Source: an uncultured Gemmatimonadota bacterium
GTDB taxonomy: Bacteria; Gemmatimonadota; Gemmatimonadetes; Gemmatimonadales; Gemmatimonadaceae
Length of the DNA stretch: 64,000 nucleotides
Assembly (NCBI GenBank): GCA_903910555.1
Contig: CAIVZZ010000001.1
Coordinates: 124,001-188,000 of the forward strand
Reading direction: 5' to 3'
Below are positions 3,763 to 31,909 of this stretch, one piece after another (position 1 is the first letter of the stretch; every line of letters starts with the position of its first letter). The notes under the pieces are model-generated. The model was not told the origin of the DNA. It worked only from the letters and a program-made list of their open reading frames with translations, and searched no databases. Position numbers and translations under genes: made by a program.

Positions 3763-6264
3763 TCACCCCGCCCTGAGCGCCTCCGTCGGCTGCACACGCG
3801 ACGCCCTCCGCGCCGGGATCCAGCTCGCGACGGCCGCAGCGAGAGCGAGCAGCACTACAATAGAGACATACGTCGCCGGATCGCCCGGCGTGATGTCGAA
3901 CAACATCGAACTCAGCGCACGCGTGAGCGCAAACGCCGCGACCACGCCGACAATCGTTCCCGCTGCCGCGAGCCACAGCCCTTCCCTGATCACCAGGCGC
4001 TGGACCTGCGCACGGTCCGCGCCGAGCGCCATGCGAATTCCAATTTCGCGCGTGCGCTGCACCACCATGAACGACATGACTCCGTAGATCCCGATCACCG
4101 CGAGTGCGAGCGCGGTCACTGCGAACATTCCAAGCAGTACCGCACTGAACCGCGCCTGCGCTGTCGCGACCGCGGTGCGCGACGCCATTGTTTTGATGTC
4201 GAACACCGGTGTGCCAGGAACGAGCGCACTGACCGTCCTGCGCGCCGCTGCGGCAAGTGCGAGCGGATCGCGCGATGTTCTCACGAAAATCATCATGCGC
4301 GACGCCGGTGATTGCGCGTACGGCAGGTACACGTCGGGATGCGGCAGCGAATCGATCGTGTGATAACGCACATCTCCGATCACGCCGACGACAGTCGCGC
4401 CGTCTTCGAACCCGCCTTGAAAAATTCCGGCGTGTTTTCCGATCGGATCTTCGCCGGGCCAAAATTTGTTCGCCGCCGTCTCGCTGATCACGATCGCCTT
4501 CGCCGCGCCCACGCGATCGTCGTCGTTGAACAGGCGCCCACGCTTCAGCGGAACCCGCATCACGCTGAACCACGAAGGCGTGATCCAATGCACTCCGATC
4601 TCGGGCGATTCGCTTTGCGGCACCGGCGGCCGGTCCGGGAACGTAATGATCGTGCCATTTCCGCCGCCGGCGAGCGGCGGACTATCCGCGAGCGCGACAC
4701 CGGTGGCACCAGGGAGCGCGCTGAGCTGCGTGGTCAGCCGGTCGTAGAACGCGGGGAGCGAATCGCGGACGATTGTGCCGCGCGACATCGTCAGGCGCAG
4801 CGTGAGCAAACCGTCGGAATCGAATCCAGGGTTTACCTGCAGCAGTTTTCCCAGACTGCGCAGCATCAGTCCCGATCCAGCGAGCAACACGATCGCGAGC
4901 GCAACTTCTGTGACGACGAGCGCGTGACGACTCGTGATGAAATGACGGCCGCCGCCCGCGCGACCGGATGATGCACCGCTCTTCATATCGTGCGCCATCG
5001 ACGGCCGCGTCGCCTGTAACGCCGGCACAAGGCCGAACATCAAGCCGACGACCACCGACACCAACAGTGTGAAAACCAAAGCAGTGAGATCGAGATGAAT
5101 CGACGAAAACCCCGCAACACCAAGCCCGGAAATTTTTTGAACGCGGAGTGTCTCGGCGGGATTCGCCGCAGCGAGCGCGCGCGTCCCCATGAGTGCGACC
5201 GCCACACTCGCCGTGCCGCCGAGCATCGCGAGCAGCAAACTCTCGGTCATGAGCAGTTGCATCAGTCGGGCGCGCGTCGCGCCAAGCGCGAGACGAATGG
5301 AAATTTCCTGTCGCCGCGCCGCAGCGCGTCCGAGCAGCAGGTTCGCGAGATTCACGCACGCAATGAGCAAGACGAGCCCGACCGCGCCGAGCAGAACGAA
5401 TAGTGAGCGGCGAACCACCGGCGATACGCGTCCGGCGTCGAGCGGAGCGACCCTGACGTCGCGCATGATTCCCGGCTCGGGAGCTGGCCACGCTTCCATG
5501 ATGGATTTCGCCCAGACCGGCGCCGCCGCAACAGCCTGTTCGGCCGGCACACCGGCCTTCAGCCGCGCGACCAATTGGAATTCATGCGACCACGCGTTTC
5601 TCGCGCCAAGGTCACCCTCGACGCGTGTCGTGATTGGCACGAAGATCTCGCCGAGGCCAGACAGACCGTTGAAGCCCGGCGGCAACACTCCCACGATCTC
5701 GAACTGTTTGAAGTCAACCGGAATCATCTTGCCGACGATCTTCGGATCTGCGTTGAACCGCCGATTCCAGAACTCGTCAGAAATCACGACGATTTTTCGC
5801 GTGTCGTAACCGTCATCACCATCGGCGTCAAATCCGCGGCCCATGGTCGGCGTCACGCCGAGCGTGGTGAGGTAGTGTGAACTGATCCACTCGCCGTTTA
5901 GCCGCTCCGCGTCGTCGCCGGTCATGTTGAAGTTGCCCTGTGCCCAGACCGCGTGCGTCTGAAACTGTTGCTGCACGCTGGTGAACGTGCGGTACTTCAT
6001 CCACGACCAGGGCAGACCCGTGCGCGCGGGATGACCATTCTGTGCAGGAGCTTCCGCGCTGACGTTCATCAGCTGCTCCGGATCTCGAAACGGCAGCGGC
6101 CGGAACATCAGTGCGTTCACCGCGCTGAAGATCGCCGTGTTCGCGCCGATCCCGACCGCGAGCGTCAGAATCGCAATCGTCGTGAACCCCGGCCTGCGCA
6201 CGAGTCCGCGCGCGGCGTAGCGAACATCCTGCACCAGTTCTTCGATTCGTTCGTGCATGGCCAT
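3763..6264 (-). CDS. ADOP-type ABC permease (MacB/FtsX fold, duplicated)
   Basis: An 833-residue membrane protein with the two-part architecture of the 'acidobacterial duplicated orphan permease' group. After a short cytosolic leader (DVRYAARGLVRRPGF) comes TM1 (TIAILTLAVGIGANTAIFSA), a periplasmic MacB-like domain, then three helices around 280-410 (GLVLLIACVNLANLLLGRAA, ESLLLAMLGGTASVAVA, VFTLLVSVVVGLMFG). The second half repeats the plan: a helix at VVTEVALAIVLLAGSGLM, a second periplasmic domain, and three C-terminal helices ending WIPARRASRVQPTEALR. No ATPase gene lies next to it. The function is probably mechanotransmission or export of an unknown envelope substrate. The first in-frame ATG (6264) and a second ATG two codons later are both possible starts. 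Confidence 0.88.
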   Translation of the reverse strand: MAMHERIEELVQDVRYAARGLVRRPGFTTIAILTLAVGIGANTAIFSAVNALMFRPLPFRDPEQLMNVSAEAPAQNGHPARTGLPWSWMKYRTFTSVQQQFQTHAVWAQGNFNMTGDDAERLNGEWISSHYLTTLGVTPTMGRGFDADGDDGYDTRKIVVISDEFWNRRFNADPKIVGKMIPVDFKQFEIVGVLPPGFNGLSGLGEIFVPITTRVEGDLGARNAWSHEFQLVARLKAGVPAEQAVAAAPVWAKSIMEAWPAPEPGIMRDVRVAPLDAGRVSPVVRRSLFVLLGAVGLVLLIACVNLANLLLGRAAARRQEISIRLALGATRARLMQLLMTESLLLAMLGGTASVAVALMGTRALAAANPAETLRVQKISGLGVAGFSSIHLDLTALVFTLLVSVVVGLMFGLVPALQATRPSMAHDMKSGASSGRAGGGRHFITSRHALVVTEVALAIVLLAGSGLMLRSLGKLLQVNPGFDSDGLLTLRLTMSRGTIVRDSLPAFYDRLTTQLSALPGATGVALADSPPLAGGGNGTIITFPDRPPVPQSESPEIGVHWITPSWFSVMRVPLKRGRLFNDDDRVGAAKAIVISETAANKFWPGEDPIGKHAGIFQGGFEDGATVVGVIGDVRYHTIDSLPHPDVYLPYAQSPASRMMIFVRTSRDPLALAAAARRTVSALVPGTPVFDIKTMASRTAVATAQARFSAVLLGMFAVTALALAVIGIYGVMSFMVVQRTREIGIRMALGADRAQVQRLVIREGLWLAAAGTIVGVVAAFALTRALSSMLFDITPGDPATYVSIVVLLALAAAVASWIPARRASRVQPTEALRAG

Positions 6265-28088: not shown

Positions 28089-28477
28089 CCGCACTTTATG
28101 CGAGAGCCGTCTTCTTCGTTTCCGACGTCGAGCGCTCCACTAGCTTCTATGCGGAACAGCTCGGCTTCGCCCTCGGCTGGGACTCTGACGACGGCGTGGT
28201 GCAGGTCGGTCTCCTTGGCTTCGAGCTGATCCTCAATCAAACCCGGGCGGATGCGCCGACACGCGTCGGCAACGGCCGGGTTTTTATCGGCCTCGACGAC
28301 GATCAGGAATCGACATTCCGAGAGCATTTACGCGTGCGGGGGATACGACCGCGCCGCACGGAGTGGGGCCGCCCGACGCTCGTGATCACCGACCCCGACG
28401 GGAACGAACTGTTCTTCTGGATGCCGCACGACGACTTCACCGGCATCGTTTTCGAGGAAGATTCGACGGGCCGCTAA
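28085..28477 (+). CDS. VOC-family protein (glyoxalase/bleomycin-resistance type)
   Basis: A 130-residue single VOC module. The pattern ARAVFFVSDVERSTSFYAEQLGFA, then FELILNQ, then TLVITDPDGNELFFW is that of the small glyoxalase/bleomycin-resistance proteins. It could bind a divalent metal or sequester a hydrophobic compound; the usual first metal His is not obvious in the first strand (AVFF), so metal use is uncertain. The GTG start overlaps the previous stop as GTGA. It lies just before the operon that begins at 28539. Confidence 0.8.
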   Translation: MTALYARAVFFVSDVERSTSFYAEQLGFALGWDSDDGVVQVGLLGFELILNQTRADAPTRVGNGRVFIGLDDDQESTFREHLRVRGIRPRRTEWGRPTLVITDPDGNELFFWMPHDDFTGIVFEEDSTGR

Positions 28478-28501
28478 TGCTTTGGCGCGGCGAGCTGTCA
28501 G

Positions 28502-28524
28502 GTTCGGTGAGGCCCCTACCGAAC
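28502..28524. promoter_or_regulatory. Inverted repeat upstream of the YHYH-SCO1-sigma operon
   Basis: GTTCGGT and ACCGAAC pair perfectly (7 bp) around a 9-bp spacer, ending 14 bp before the YHYH-protein start. It could be an operator for the operon or a 3' hairpin of the VOC gene. Confidence 0.35.
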
Positions 28525-28538
28525 TGAGGACAGCACCA

Positions 28539-29309
28539 ATGCGCCAATTCGCCGTAACTGCGTTCGCGCTCGCCGCCACGCTCGCGTGTGCCAGCGGGTC
28601 GACCACGCCGACCGCCGCCACCACTACGACCACCGGAACGAACACGACCGGCACGACCAACACCGGCGGCTCAACCACGCCGTCGCTGCCATCCGGCTAC
28701 GAGAAATTTACCAACGGCACGTCGGTGCAAATCTCCGGCAACTTTGTCGTCGTCTCGACCACCGACGTCCCGAATCACAAGAGTCCGTACTTTGGCGTCG
28801 GCAACGCGAACTACGTCGCGCCAACCGCGGGGATCGTGCTCAACCCGAGCCACATCGCCGCGCAGTCCTACGTCCTGCGCATCCCGATCGCACCGGCCGC
28901 GGCAGCAAGCCCGGGCGACACGCCTCTCGACGCCATCGGTGTCGCGCTCAATGGCGTCGTCTTCTTCAATCAGTACGCTGCCGGGCGCGTGCCGCTCACG
29001 ACGGAAATCGTTTCGTTCGATCAGTACAATGGCCATCCGGCGATGCAAAACAACTATCACTACCATTTCGAGCCGCTCTATCTAACCGCGGCCACGAAGT
29101 CGGCGCTGATCGGCTTCATCCTCGACGGCTATCCGATTTACGGCCCCCAGGAGACCAGCGGCAGCGCGCCCACCGGCCTCGACGCGTGCAACGGCCACAC
29201 GCACGCGACGCTCGAATATCCGAACGGCATCTATCACTACCATGTCGTGTCGTCGCCGCCGTATCTCGTGGGATGTTTCCATGGGACGGCCGGCACCGTC
29301 ACGAACTGA
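28539..29309 (+). CDS. YHYH-domain lipoprotein
   Basis: 256 residues. A short signal ends in a lipobox-like LAATLAC (Cys17), followed by a Thr/Gly-rich linker to about residue 52, then the YHYH domain. Two diagnostic motifs are visible, NYHYHFEP and IYHYHVVS, plus DGYPIYGP and NGHTHATLEY. YHYH proteins are secreted, common in environmental bacteria and uncharacterised; the clustered His residues suggest metal binding, which is inference. The ATG at 28539 has GAGGA upstream. It is the first gene of a six-gene unit with SCO1 and an ECF sigma factor. Confidence 0.85.
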   Translation: MRQFAVTAFALAATLACASGSTTPTAATTTTTGTNTTGTTNTGGSTTPSLPSGYEKFTNGTSVQISGNFVVVSTTDVPNHKSPYFGVGNANYVAPTAGIVLNPSHIAAQSYVLRIPIAPAAAASPGDTPLDAIGVALNGVVFFNQYAAGRVPLTTEIVSFDQYNGHPAMQNNYHYHFEPLYLTAATKSALIGFILDGYPIYGPQETSGSAPTGLDACNGHTHATLEYPNGIYHYHVVSSPPYLVGCFHGTAGTVTN

Positions 29310-29320
29310 GCGTGACCGTC

Positions 29321-29728
29321 ATGCGAACAGTCGTGCTCGTCCTTGTTGTCGCGATCGCCGCAGCGTGCGACGGCAACGCGGCCGTTACCGTGACGAAGCA
29401 GTACGACAACGGACGCATCTCCGAATCGCGCATGTACGTACGCGGTGTGAAGACCGGCGTCCATCGCGGGTGGTGGCCGAACGGCATGCCGCGCTTCGAG
29501 TGCCGCTTCAGGGATGGACTCTCAGACGGTACCTGCCGCGAATGGTACGACAACGGGCAGCTCGCAACTGTACATCGCTTTCGCGACGGCGTTGAGGCAG
29601 GTTTGCAGCAGGGATGGAGCGCTGCAGGCGCGCCGCAGTTCAGCTACGAATTTCGCGACGGGCGCCGTTACGGCCTGCTCGGCGCGCTCAACTGCAAAAC
29701 CGGCGCGCGCACTCCGGGAGCGATCTGA
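29321..29728 (+). CDS. MORN/YwqK-like repeat lipoprotein
   Basis: 135 residues. The signal MRTVVLVLVVAIAAAC has a lipobox with Cys16. The rest is a series of MORN-variant repeats: KQYDNGRISES, GWWPNGMPRFEC, EWYDNGQLATV and GWSAAGAPQFSY. Such repeats form beta-hairpins and are often labelled YwqK-family antitoxin; no toxin partner is visible, so that label is not used. Its TGA stop shares its last base with the SCO1 ATG. It starts 11 bp after the YHYH gene. Confidence 0.72.
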   Translation: MRTVVLVLVVAIAAACDGNAAVTVTKQYDNGRISESRMYVRGVKTGVHRGWWPNGMPRFECRFRDGLSDGTCREWYDNGQLATVHRFRDGVEAGLQQGWSAAGAPQFSYEFRDGRRYGLLGALNCKTGARTPGAI

Positions 29729-30432
29729 TGCAAACTCCACGTTTTTCGAAAAACGACTTCACGCGTTTCGTCGTACGCAGCGGCGTTTTTCTTGGGGTCG
29801 CGGTCGCCGCGTTCACATTTATCGCGTTGAACGGCTCGCACCGCGGCAGCACGGTTCCTGCACTTCCCTTCTTTTCCGATTCGACGCTCACACCGGTGTG
29901 GACAGCTGACACCGCGGGCTTGCATCGCATCGGCGCGTTCTCGCTCGTCGATCAGCGATCGCGTGCGACGAGCGAAGTGAACCTGAATGGCCGCGTTACC
30001 GTCGTGACGTTTTTCTATGCGACCTGCAAGGATCTCTGCCCGCGCCTCCAGAGCAAGCTCGCCGCGGTGCATTCGAAATTTCGCGACGAGCCGCGCGTGC
30101 AGCTGCTCTCGATTTCAGTAGCACCCGAACACGATACGGCTCCGGTACTCGCGGCGTACGCGGAGGCAAATCATATCGCGACGCCGGACTGGCTCCTGCT
30201 CACCGGCGCACGCAGCGAGGTCGAACGCGTCGAGCGTGAGTCCTTCTTTGGAAACTCGCTCATCATACACGCTGCGGGCGCGACGCACGGCGAAACGATC
30301 TGGCTGCTCGATGCATCGCGGCGGATCCGGGGGGTGTACAACGGCACGATGCCGCTCGACACGGAACGGATCGAGGCAGACATAGCGACGCTCCTGGCCA
30401 AAGAAACCCAAATCGCCGCGCGTGGCGCCTGA
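29728..30432 (+). CDS. SCO1/SenC/PrrC-family copper chaperone
   Basis: 234 residues with an N-terminal membrane anchor (about 14-33) and a thioredoxin-fold domain outside. The copper/thiol site is complete: Cys100 and Cys104 in CKDLC, preceded by VVTFFYAT, and a distal His181 in LIIHAAG. SCO proteins deliver Cu to the CuA site of cytochrome oxidase or act as thiol redox sensors. The ATG overlaps the previous stop by one base, and the end overlaps the sigma factor start by 11 bp. No oxidase gene is in the window. Confidence 0.9.
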   Translation: MQTPRFSKNDFTRFVVRSGVFLGVAVAAFTFIALNGSHRGSTVPALPFFSDSTLTPVWTADTAGLHRIGAFSLVDQRSRATSEVNLNGRVTVVTFFYATCKDLCPRLQSKLAAVHSKFRDEPRVQLLSISVAPEHDTAPVLAAYAEANHIATPDWLLLTGARSEVERVERESFFGNSLIIHAAGATHGETIWLLDASRRIRGVYNGTMPLDTERIEADIATLLAKETQIAARGA

Positions 30433-30970
30433 GGCGACCGATGCCCAACTCGTTGCACGCTGCCGCGCAGGTGATGCCGCGGCGTTCGAGGCGCTCGTGC
30501 GCCGCCACTATCGCGCGACGTACGCCGTCGCCTTTGCAGTGATGCGCAATCAGATGGACGCCGAAGACGTCTGTCAGGATGCCATGATCCGCGCGCTCGA
30601 GCGCATGGAAGAATGCCGCGATCCCGAACGCTTCGGCGCGTGGCTCGGCCAGATCGCGCGCCGCCGCGCGTTCAACGCGCGCGATGCGCGGCGTGTGCGC
30701 GAGACCGACGATCTCACTCCCGAAACCACCGCCGGCGCCGACGATCCCGCTCGCGCAACGGAGAACGAAGAGCTGAAAGCGAGACTCCTCGCCGCGCTCG
30801 ATTCACTGAGCGCAGTGCAGCGCGCCGTCGTCCTGCTCCACGATCACGATGGGCGCACGCACAGAGAGATCGGCGAAATCGTTGGATGCTCGGAAGGAAT
30901 GTCACAGCAACATCTGTTCGCGGCGCGGAAACTTCTGCGCCGTAACCTGGGAGATATGCGCGATGGATGA
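30422..30970 (+). CDS. ECF-type RNA polymerase sigma factor
   Basis: 182 residues. Region 2 is recognisable at FEALVRRHYRATYAVAFAVM...DAEDVCQDAMIRALE and GAWLGQIARRRAFN; region 4 at LDSLSAVQRAVVLLHDHDGR...IGEIVGCSEGMSQQHLFAARK. The GTG start at 30422 lies inside the SCO1 gene. The next gene encodes a one-TM protein whose start lies inside this one, typical of sigma/anti-sigma pairs. Its likely targets include its own operon. No promoter consensus could be identified by eye. Confidence 0.93.
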   Translation: MAPEATDAQLVARCRAGDAAAFEALVRRHYRATYAVAFAVMRNQMDAEDVCQDAMIRALERMEECRDPERFGAWLGQIARRRAFNARDARRVRETDDLTPETTAGADDPARATENEELKARLLAALDSLSAVQRAVVLLHDHDGRTHREIGEIVGCSEGMSQQHLFAARKLLRRNLGDMRDG

Positions 30971-31340
30971 TCAGACAAGCGAACAGACACCACTCGATTT
31001 CTCAGCGCTCGGCGCGTCGCTTCCCGCAGCGCGCTTCGATGCGCTTGTCGCTGCCGTGGCGCGACGCGGTGAAGATGAACTTCAGCGCCGCCGCGGTGCA
31101 GTGGCCGTTGTGCGCGTTGTTATCGCGTGGCGCCGCCCGCTTCTCGCGGTCTCAGGACTGGCGGCCGCCGCGGCGATCATGCTCTTCGTGCGCGCGGCGC
31201 CCGTTACGAGCGCGATTGCAACAACCGAATCCGCAACGGCAGGAAGTGTTGCCGAAGCACTCGGCGTTCCTGCCGCATACGCAGAATCAGTCGAAGGACG
31301 CACCGCGGGTGCGGCAACAGGAGGGTCGGAGAAACAATGA
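30963..31340 (+). CDS. One-TM protein, probable anti-sigma factor (CnrY-like)
   Basis: 125 residues: an N-terminal cytosolic segment of about 58 residues with a helix-prone ARFDALVAAVARRGEDELQRR, one TM segment (about 59-76, PLLAVSGLAAAAAIMLFV) and a short periplasmic tail. There is no HxxxCxxC zinc-binding anti-sigma motif. Position directly after and overlapping the sigma gene by 8 bp makes an anti-sigma role likely. The build (short cytosolic sigma-binding arm, one TM) is like CnrY. Sequence alone does not prove the function. Confidence 0.62.
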   Translation: MDDQTSEQTPLDFSALGASLPAARFDALVAAVARRGEDELQRRRGAVAVVRVVIAWRRPLLAVSGLAAAAAIMLFVRAAPVTSAIATTESATAGSVAEALGVPAAYAESVEGRTAGAATGGSEKQ

Positions 31341-31909
31341 CGAACGCGATTCGCACACTCGGCCGGATGGAATGGCAGGCGACACTGCTGCTGGTGGTAG
31401 TGTTTGGCACCGGCGCTGCGGTCGGCGCGGCGATCGATCGCTCACGCACGGCGGCTCCGCCGCCTGCCGCGCCCGCACCGCCGGCACGCCCAGGTCGGTT
31501 GCCGCCGTATCTCGAGCGTATGGACCTCACGCAGGAGCAGCATGCGAAGATCAAAACGATCCTCGACGCGCAGCGGCCGAAGGTCGACACGGTGATGAGT
31601 ATGGTTCTGCCGCGATTGCAGGCGCTGAGCGATTCCACTTTTGCGCAGATTCGCGGAGTACTGACGCCAGAACAGCAGACGCGGTTCGATCACGACCGGC
31701 CGCGTCGCGATCTCGCGCCTGGAATGCCCGGAGCGGGTGGCCGCGGCGGTCGCGAAGATGGCGGTGGTCCGCCGCCCGAGCGACGCCCGCCACCTCCAAG
31801 AGATGGGCGCGGCCCGCCGCCGCCGCGGGACGGTCGTGGTCCGCCACCTGACGGTCGTGGCCCGCCGCCCGACGGCCGGGGACCGCCACCGCCTCGCCCG
31901 CCGGTCTAA
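31337..31909 (+). CDS. Periplasmic LTxxQ (Spy/CnrX-like) metal or stress sensor
   Basis: 190 residues: a signal anchor (ATLLLVVVFGTGAAVGAAI), a Pro-rich linker, then a helical hairpin with two LTxxQ-type motifs (LTQEQ at 64-68, LTPEQ at 109-113). This is the fold of Spy, CpxP and CnrX (heavy-metal resistance family). The only His residues are His69 and His119, both next to these motifs. The last 50 residues are a repeated DGRGPPP low-complexity tail. Its ATG overlaps the stop of the anti-sigma gene as ATGA. It may act as the periplasmic sensor that controls the anti-sigma protein. Confidence 0.75.
   Translation: MTNAIRTLGRMEWQATLLLVVVFGTGAAVGAAIDRSRTAAPPPAAPAPPARPGRLPPYLERMDLTQEQHAKIKTILDAQRPKVDTVMSMVLPRLQALSDSTFAQIRGVLTPEQQTRFDHDRPRRDLAPGMPGAGGRGGREDGGGPPPERRPPPPRDGRGPPPPRDGRGPPPDGRGPPPDGRGPPPPRPPV
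31802..31891 (+). repeat. In-frame 21-bp tandem repeat in the Spy-like gene
   Basis: A 27-bp unit (31802-31828) is followed by three 21-bp units at 31829, 31850 and 31871, each encoding DGRGPPP (the first DGRGPPPPR). Unit-to-unit identity at DNA level is high, so copy number could vary by slippage. Confidence 0.8.

What the first reader, a model, noticed from the sequence alone, without database searches (positions are those of the whole stretch)
28539..31909. CnrYXH-like sensing cassette joined to a YHYH-MORN-SCO1 module
Six genes overlap or nearly overlap: YHYH lipoprotein, MORN lipoprotein, SCO1 copper chaperone, ECF sigma, a one-TM protein without a zinc anti-sigma motif, and an LTxxQ periplasmic protein. 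The last three have the same parts as the CnrH (sigma), CnrY (one-TM anti-sigma) and CnrX (periplasmic metal sensor) nickel/cobalt system. Established: CnrX belongs to the Spy-like metal-resistance fold and CnrY is a short TM anti-sigma factor. Inference: here such a cassette senses copper or redox state at the envelope and controls SCO1 and the uncharacterised His-rich YHYH protein. I know of no described system with this make-up.
Basis: partly seen in the sequence, partly recalled or inferred. Interest (0 to 1): 0.75.

Follow-up and report, generated by a model that had tools for sequence, protein, structure and literature searches.

The report
Envelope-stress sigma switch driving SCO1–YHYH operon
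Six overlapping genes join a membrane-stress sensing switch (a sigma factor, its likely membrane inhibitor and a Spy-like periplasmic sensor) to a copper-chaperone-type protein and two uncharacterised envelope proteins, and the same six genes recur in a distant phylum in another order, which points to a real but undescribed bacterial envelope-stress system.

Summary
In detail: six overlapping + strand genes at 28539-31909 (YHYH, MORN, SCO1, ECF sigma, one-TM protein, LTxxQ protein). Two conserved modules are joined here. Sigma/TM/LTxxQ is a phylum-wide Gemmatimonadota cassette, found complete at nearly every related sigma gene examined. YHYH-MORN-SCO1 is a cross-phylum operon (77 of 80 named YHYH loci). 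They are joined in at least seven Gemmatimonadota genomes, with two sigma subgroups and two orientations, and about 28 loci, nearly all Bacteroidota, carry the same set in another order. A promoter matrix built without the window finds its second-best site in 64 kb just upstream of YHYH (28474-28499), and the best site in a second joined genome is likewise upstream of YHYH. The sigma factor very probably drives the whole operon. Metal sensing is not supported for this lineage: the LTxxQ family is Spy-like (profile E 1.3e-9; NccX 4.6) and lacks conserved His/Cys and the CnrX H119/M123 ligands. The Bacteroidota sensors do resemble CnrX/NccX, with two near-invariant His and a Cys. The sigma/anti-sigma clamp could not be confirmed by modelling. 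No paper found couples YHYH to SCO1. New variant of a known kind.

The parts
28474..28499 (+). predicted ECF promoter CTAAT-N17-TGTC (-35 at 28474-28478, -10 at 28496-28499) of the six-gene operon, 40 bp upstream of the YHYH ATG
   Evidence: PWM from 26 other loci's cassette promoters (window excluded); 14.6 bits, 2nd best site on both strands of the 64-kb window; P 0.0002 against a Markov background, 0.001 against real window pieces
28539..29309 (+). YHYH-domain lipoprotein, 256 aa
   Evidence: PF14240 E 2.9e-22; His/Asp motifs invariant in 17 homologues
29321..29728 (+). MORN-repeat-variant lipoprotein, 135 aa (alternative GTG start 29312)
   Evidence: MORN_2 E 1.1e-5, just under cut-off; found beside YHYH and SCO1 throughout
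29728..30432 (+). SCO1/SenC-family protein, 234 aa, membrane-anchored, CxxxC plus distal His
   Evidence: PF02630 E 2.3e-20; C100, C104 and H187 invariant in 15 homologues
30422..30970 (+). ECF sigma factor, 182 aa
   Evidence: Sigma70 r2 and r4 in Pfam, TIGR02937 E 1.6e-29
30963..31340 (+). one-TM protein, 125 aa: about 56-residue cytoplasmic arm, TM helix, periplasmic tail with ALGVP motif; predicted anti-sigma factor
   Evidence: present after the sigma gene in essentially all window-type loci examined; conserved arm D-F/L-S-x-L-D-P and tail motif; no Pfam match
31337..31909 (+). membrane-anchored Spy/CpxP-like LTxxQ protein, 190 aa, with Pro/Gly/Arg-rich tail; predicted periplasmic sensor
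   Evidence: family profile matches Spy 1.3e-9 and CpxP 0.016 in PDB; AF2: TM helix 8-37, helices 66-108 and 111-120

Best explanation
This is one self-regulated envelope-stress operon. At rest the one-TM protein holds the ECF sigma factor at the membrane with its short cytoplasmic arm, and the membrane-anchored Spy-like LTxxQ protein, touching the anti-sigma's periplasmic tail, keeps it in the holding state. When the LTxxQ protein is drawn off by an envelope signal (most likely damaged or misfolded periplasmic protein or a membrane-active compound, as for Spy/CpxP), the anti-sigma lets go. The sigma factor then transcribes the whole operon from the CTAAY-N17-TGTC promoter at 28474: YHYH protein, MORN lipoprotein and SCO1, plus its own three control genes. 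SCO1 (CxxxC + His), YHYH (His/Asp-rich, predicted metal-binding) and the MORN lipoprotein act together on copper and/or thiol redox state in the periplasm. Shown here: gene content, conservation of both modules, repeated joining, copper-ligand residues of SCO1, absence of CnrX ligands. Strongly inferred: promoter and autoregulation. Inferred: anti-sigma and sensor roles, topology, signal. Least certain: what YHYH-MORN-SCO1 does.
For: Cassette: sigma relatives (E<=1e-36) occur in 119 of 395 phylum genomes; TM and LTxxQ genes follow the sigma gene in nearly all of about 55 loci and in all 40 further loci read. Output module: YHYH, MORN and SCO1 lie together in 77 of 80 named loci from Bacteroidota, Acidobacteriota, Planctomycetota and others. 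Joining: window and G359/L166 co-directional; G269/L182 co-directional with another sigma subgroup; G384, G300, G199, G362 divergent; G106 and G238 divergent YHYH variants; 28 loci, nearly all Bacteroidota, with sigma 0.8-1.8 kb upstream on the same strand, 27 with a candidate sensor gene between. Promoter: consensus CTAAC-N17-TGTC in 16 of 56 sigma upstream regions against a shuffled maximum of 4-5; PWM hits upstream of YHYH in window and L166; the second sigma subgroup has its own motif, best dyad in 7 of 19 YHYH upstream regions against a shuffled maximum of 3-4. Sensor is Spy-like.
Against: No direct evidence of sigma/anti-sigma contact: the AF2 read-through fusion has pTM 0.43 and its sigma domains do not superpose as a whole on known closed complexes (rmsd 10 A or more over both domains); covariation between arm and sigma is only slightly above that between tail and sigma. 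G006, G008 and G009 in the same genus keep the two modules apart. 29 of 55 window-type sigma loci give no clear promoter hit with the matrix, and the genome-wide pattern count is near background (20 against 15 reversed). The signal is unknown.
Confidence: 0.6

Rival explanations
1. True Cnr-type metal switch: the LTxxQ protein binds Cu, Ni or Co directly and its change of shape frees the sigma factor, so that copper excess or shortage induces SCO1 and YHYH.
For: SCO1 is a copper protein with intact ligands. The Bacteroidota counterparts have sensors that match NccX/CnrX (7e-5) with near-invariant His (aligned with CnrX H119), a second His and a Cys.
Against: In the window lineage no His/Cys set is conserved; CnrX H119 and M123 positions are Thr and Ile; the family is closer to Spy than to CnrX.
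Confidence: 0.2
2. The LTxxQ protein is not the sensor but an effector: a Spy-like chaperone made by the operon, while the one-TM protein itself senses the envelope or is cut by proteases.
For: Spy and CpxP are themselves stress-induced chaperones (established knowledge); the family profile is Spy-like; a predicted extra target of the same promoter is a small secreted protein (C10:64688).
Against: The LTxxQ gene is almost never absent after sigma and TM, is membrane-anchored rather than free, and its place in the cassette equals that of CnrX.
Confidence: 0.15
3. Two independent operons that merely lie end to end; the overlap of SCO1 and sigma genes has no regulatory meaning.
For: The modules are separate in several close relatives; overlapping genes are common in compact genomes.
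Against: Repeated joining with different sigma subgroups, orders and phyla, and matching promoters upstream of YHYH.
Confidence: 0.05

Closest known systems
CnrYXH (CnrH/CnrY/CnrX) of Cupriavidus metallidurans, and NccYXH
   Same: three parts in the same roles and topology: ECF sigma, short one-TM protein without zinc anti-sigma motif, N-terminally anchored periplasmic helical protein
   Different: sensor family is Spy-like without the CnrX ligands; sigma is nearer AlgU/RpoE/SigE than CnrH; gene order is sigma-TM-sensor and not Y-X-H; controls YHYH-MORN-SCO1 instead of an RND metal pump
Spy and CpxP periplasmic LTxxQ proteins (Bae/Cpx stress responses)
   Same: family profile and two LTxxQ motifs
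   Different: anchored by an N-terminal TM helix, coupled to an ECF sigma and not to a two-component system; shorter segment between the motifs; Pro/Gly/Arg-rich tail
SCO1/SenC/PrrC copper chaperones and thiol reductases
   Same: CxxxC plus distal His, membrane anchor
   Different: not next to cytochrome oxidase genes; the genome has another, canonical SCO (C1, about 189.5-190.1 kb) and its COX2 lies on C17
Bacteroidota sigma - TM - CnrX-like - YHYH - MORN - SCO1 loci (e.g. Runella, Emticicia, Agaribacillus; this work)
   Same: same six gene kinds next to each other
   Different: control genes come first; sensor is CnrX/NccX-like with conserved His, His, Cys

Membership tests
CnrYXH system | ECF sigma of the CnrH kind | tested here: inconclusive
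   window sigma matches CnrH 4cxf_A at 6.7e-8, but AlgU, SigE and RpoE at 5e-14 to 4e-13; no ECF-group HMMs available
CnrYXH system | short one-TM anti-sigma without zinc motif, gene coupled to sigma | tested here: met
   about 56-residue arm, one TM helix, no HxxxCxxC, follows sigma in essentially all loci read; met in form only, no sequence match to CnrY
CnrYXH system | two-helix arm clamps sigma regions 2 and 4 | tested here: inconclusive
   AF2 of an in-frame sigma-TM read-through from a relative: arm helix 212-234 confident (pLDDT about 89-93) but pTM 0.43 and no coordinates to inspect; covariation weak
CnrYXH system | periplasmic sensor with the CnrX ligands (H42, H46, E63, H119, M123; from own knowledge) | tested here: not met
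   no His/Cys conserved in 52 aligned LTxxQ proteins; positions of H119 and M123 are T101 and I105
CnrYXH system | controls an RND metal-efflux operon | tested here: not met
   joined to YHYH-MORN-SCO1 here; some related cassettes in the genus do lie near RND pump genes (by eye)
Class I anti-sigma domain (ASD-I) | four-helix domain before the TM helix, with or without HxxxCxxC (PMC7406223) | tested here: not met
   only about 56 residues precede the TM helix and there is no zinc motif; longer ASD-I-like forms occur in sister cassettes L175 and L182
Spy/CpxP LTxxQ family (PF07813) | LTxxQ motifs in a helical periplasmic protein | tested here: met
   two motifs (64-68, 109-113); single sequence 21.7 bits, just under the 24.3 cut-off, family profile to Spy 1.3e-9, relative L194 above the cut-off
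SCO1/SenC | thioredoxin-like family with CxxxC and distal His | tested here: met
   PF02630 2.3e-20; C100, C104, H187 invariant
YHYH (PF14240) | profile match and YHYH / DG / GH / YHYH motifs | tested here: met
   80 bits against cut-off 25; invariant H80, D161, H174, H176, D196, H220, H233, H235

The most novel reading that the evidence does not exclude
A cross-phylum envelope-stress system not yet described, built on one fixed effector set (YHYH-MORN-SCO1) that has been wired several times independently to ECF sigma / short anti-sigma / helical-sensor cassettes, with the sensor exchanged between a Spy-like chaperone type (Gemmatimonadota) and a CnrX-like His/His/Cys type (Bacteroidota). YHYH would then be a new periplasmic copper or redox protein working with SCO1.
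Probability: 0.45. Interest if true: 0.75.

Novelty: new variant of a known kind. Interest (0 to 1): 0.62.

Why it matters
YHYH is a widespread family without known function (the only functional statement found is a predicted metal-dependent hydrolase in phage tails, PMC7824862). Its near-constant partnership with SCO1 and a MORN lipoprotein, and its likely control by envelope-sensing sigma cassettes in two phyla, give it a pathway, a predicted inducer class and cultured hosts (Runella, Emticicia) in which to test it. The exchange of sensor type in front of one effector set is also a neat natural experiment on how ECF signalling is rewired.

Tried and rejected
AF2 of the sigma-TM pair through an in-frame relative (L390 with TGA read through): arm helix confident, overall arrangement not, no coordinates available, so the clamp is unproven. 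Two earlier alignments for it (A5, A6) placed the arm against the wrong part of sigma and were dropped. Foldseek and VIA found nothing for the LTxxQ model, which is mostly one TM helix and one long helix; this does not show a new fold. Sigma-TM-sensor covariation with 92 trios: arm positions 25 and 28 pair with sigma 163 and 166 in a helical rhythm, but the tail scores nearly as high and subfamily history can explain it. Rfam: nothing in the window. TM profile against PDB: nothing. YHYH profile against PDB: only chance-like hits. Considered and rejected: chance adjacency, and a zinc anti-sigma factor.
Full report
Observation. The six genes are present at the stated coordinates, all on the + strand, with stop/start overlaps of the kind expected of one transcription unit. 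Pfam names YHYH (2.9e-22), SCO1-SenC (2.3e-20) and an ECF sigma; MORN_2 and LTXXQ fall just under their curated cut-offs, and the one-TM protein matches nothing.

Two modules. Searching relatives with single genes separated two units. The sigma / one-TM / LTxxQ cassette: 119 of 395 genomes of the phylum hold a sigma relative at E <= 1e-36. In about 55 such loci read with family HMMs, the TM and LTxxQ genes follow the sigma gene on the same strand in nearly all (L211 has genes in between; the TM profile misses L220 and L225, where a TM gene is nevertheless visible). In 40 further loci all 40 have both. The window's own genome has a second copy at C6:167520-168932. In the genus, some cassettes lie near efflux-pump and MacB-like permease genes (read by eye), none of those near SCO1. 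The YHYH-MORN-SCO1 unit occurs without the cassette in G006, G008, G009 and others, and in 77 of 80 named loci from Bacteroidota, Acidobacteriota, Planctomycetota, Calditrichota and others, so it is a widespread operon in its own right.

Joining recurs. In Gemmatimonadota the units are joined co-directionally in the window and G359 (L166), co-directionally with a different sigma subgroup in G269 (L182), and head to head in G384, G300, G199 and G362 (L174, L175, L178, L179): 7 of about 18 YHYH-MORN-SCO1 loci read. The second sigma subgroup is found in only 28 of 395 genomes; two more of its members face a YHYH-domain gene (G106, G238). In the named set, 28 loci, nearly all Bacteroidota, have an ECF sigma 0.8-1.8 kb upstream of YHYH on the same strand, with a short one-TM gene (28 of 28) and a candidate sensor gene (27, of which two picks, L315 and L372, look doubtful) between. 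Runella, Agaribacillus and Emticicia show the clean order sigma, TM, sensor, YHYH, MORN, SCO1. This repeated coupling in different orders is hard to explain without a functional link.

Promoters. Upstream regions of the stand-alone cassettes share CTAAC-N17-TGTC (16 of 56 exact, shuffled maximum 4-5). A matrix from 26 sites, none from the window, was run over both strands of the 64-kb window. Its second-best hit (14.6 bits) is 28474-28499, CTAAT-N17-TGTC, 40 bp before the YHYH start; the best hit in L166 (8.9 bits) is also just upstream of YHYH. Chance of a hit this good in such a stretch: 0.0002 and 0.001 by Markov simulation, 0.001 and 0.003 from real window pieces. The second sigma subgroup has a different motif, TGGAATG-N15-TTGTC, upstream of YHYH in L168, L174, L175, L177, L178 and L182, in part in L179, and next to several of its own sigma genes. 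So each cassette type appears to be wired to YHYH-MORN-SCO1 by its own promoter. The best window hit (18.4 bits) is 27 bp upstream of a MacB-like permease gene (3763-6264, minus). In the own genome a pattern search gave 20 hits against 15 for the reversed pattern, so most are noise, but all six with more than 13 bits lie at gene starts: a small secreted protein, the permease, the second cassette's sigma, another ECF sigma, the YHYH operon and a di-haem cytochrome c peroxidase lipoprotein. Which of the two paralogous sigmas uses each site is not known.

Sensor. The LTxxQ family profile matches Spy (1.3e-9) and CpxP (0.016), and NccX only at 4.6. No His or Cys column is conserved among 52 proteins, and the positions of CnrX H119 and M123, read off the LTPEQ anchor and the CnrX alignment, are Thr101 and Ile105. 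Metal sensing by a CnrX-type site is therefore not supported in this lineage. The Bacteroidota sensors differ: their profile matches NccX and CnrX (7e-5 to 5e-4) better than Spy (0.0035); one near-invariant His aligns with CnrX H119, and a second His and a Cys are also near-invariant. There copper or redox sensing is a fair hypothesis.

Anti-sigma. The one-TM protein has an arm of about 56 residues with a D-F/L-S-x-L-D-P motif and a predicted helix, the TM helix, and a tail with an ALGVP motif. It is too short for a class I anti-sigma domain (described in PMC7406223) and resembles CnrY (class II, two helices embracing sigma 2 and 4; PMC4598750, PMC7406223) in size only; no sequence match was found. 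A structure prediction of an in-frame sigma-TM read-through from a relative was inconclusive, as was covariation.

Effectors. SCO1 keeps CxxxC and the distal His in all 15 aligned proteins, so copper or thiol chemistry is likely; the genome has a separate canonical SCO and its oxidase genes lie elsewhere. YHYH keeps eight His/Asp positions in all 17 aligned proteins; in phages it was predicted to be a zinc-dependent hydrolase (PMC7824862). No paper in the library holds both YHYH and SCO1.

Verdict. A real, recurrent and apparently undescribed pairing of an envelope-sensing ECF cassette with a YHYH-MORN-SCO1 effector set. It works like CnrYXH in layout but is not filed as a member of that family, because the sensor ligands and the pump target were tested and not met. 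New variant of a known kind; the function of the effector set is the open part.

Noticed in passing
window 6316-6291 (-), gene 3763-6264 (-): Best match in the window (18.4 bits) to the cassette promoter motif, 27 bp upstream of a MacB-like/FtsX permease gene; similar permease genes lie near stand-alone cassettes in the genus.
   Followed up: partly
G000:C6:167520-168932 (L084): A second, paralogous sigma/TM/LTxxQ cassette in the same genome with its own promoter match (L234, 16.3 bits).
   Followed up: partly
L239 (G000:C21:4591-4616): Promoter-like match (13.4 bits) at the start of a di-haem cytochrome c peroxidase lipoprotein gene; possible further target of the same sigma type.
   Followed up: partly
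window 28502-28524: Inverted repeat GTTCGGT-N9-ACCGAAC between the -10 box and the YHYH start; not seen in the L166 upstream region; role unknown.
   Followed up: no
L166 (G359:C303) 4166-4726: SCO1 is split into two adjacent stretches in different frames (probable assembly frameshift, or a broken gene).
   Followed up: no
L175 7494-7931, L182 (minus strand): TM proteins of the second sigma subgroup carry full class I-like N-terminal helices, while sister cassettes (L174, L178, L179) keep only the last one, suggesting stepwise shortening of the anti-sigma domain.
   Followed up: no
L081, L083, L085, L089, L090: Stand-alone cassettes in the genus lie beside RND efflux operons and a conserved large membrane protein beginning ...AATEPATSRWI..., hinting at envelope-toxicant sensing.
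   Followed up: no
L211 (G147:C138): Sigma gene separated from its TM/LTxxQ genes by about 2.7 kb of minus-strand genes, a rare split of the cassette.
   Followed up: no
L297 (CALQBJ020000106.1): Record titled Bifidobacterium breve carries an Acidobacteria-like YHYH-MORN-SCO1 locus; probably a mislabelled bin.
   Followed up: no
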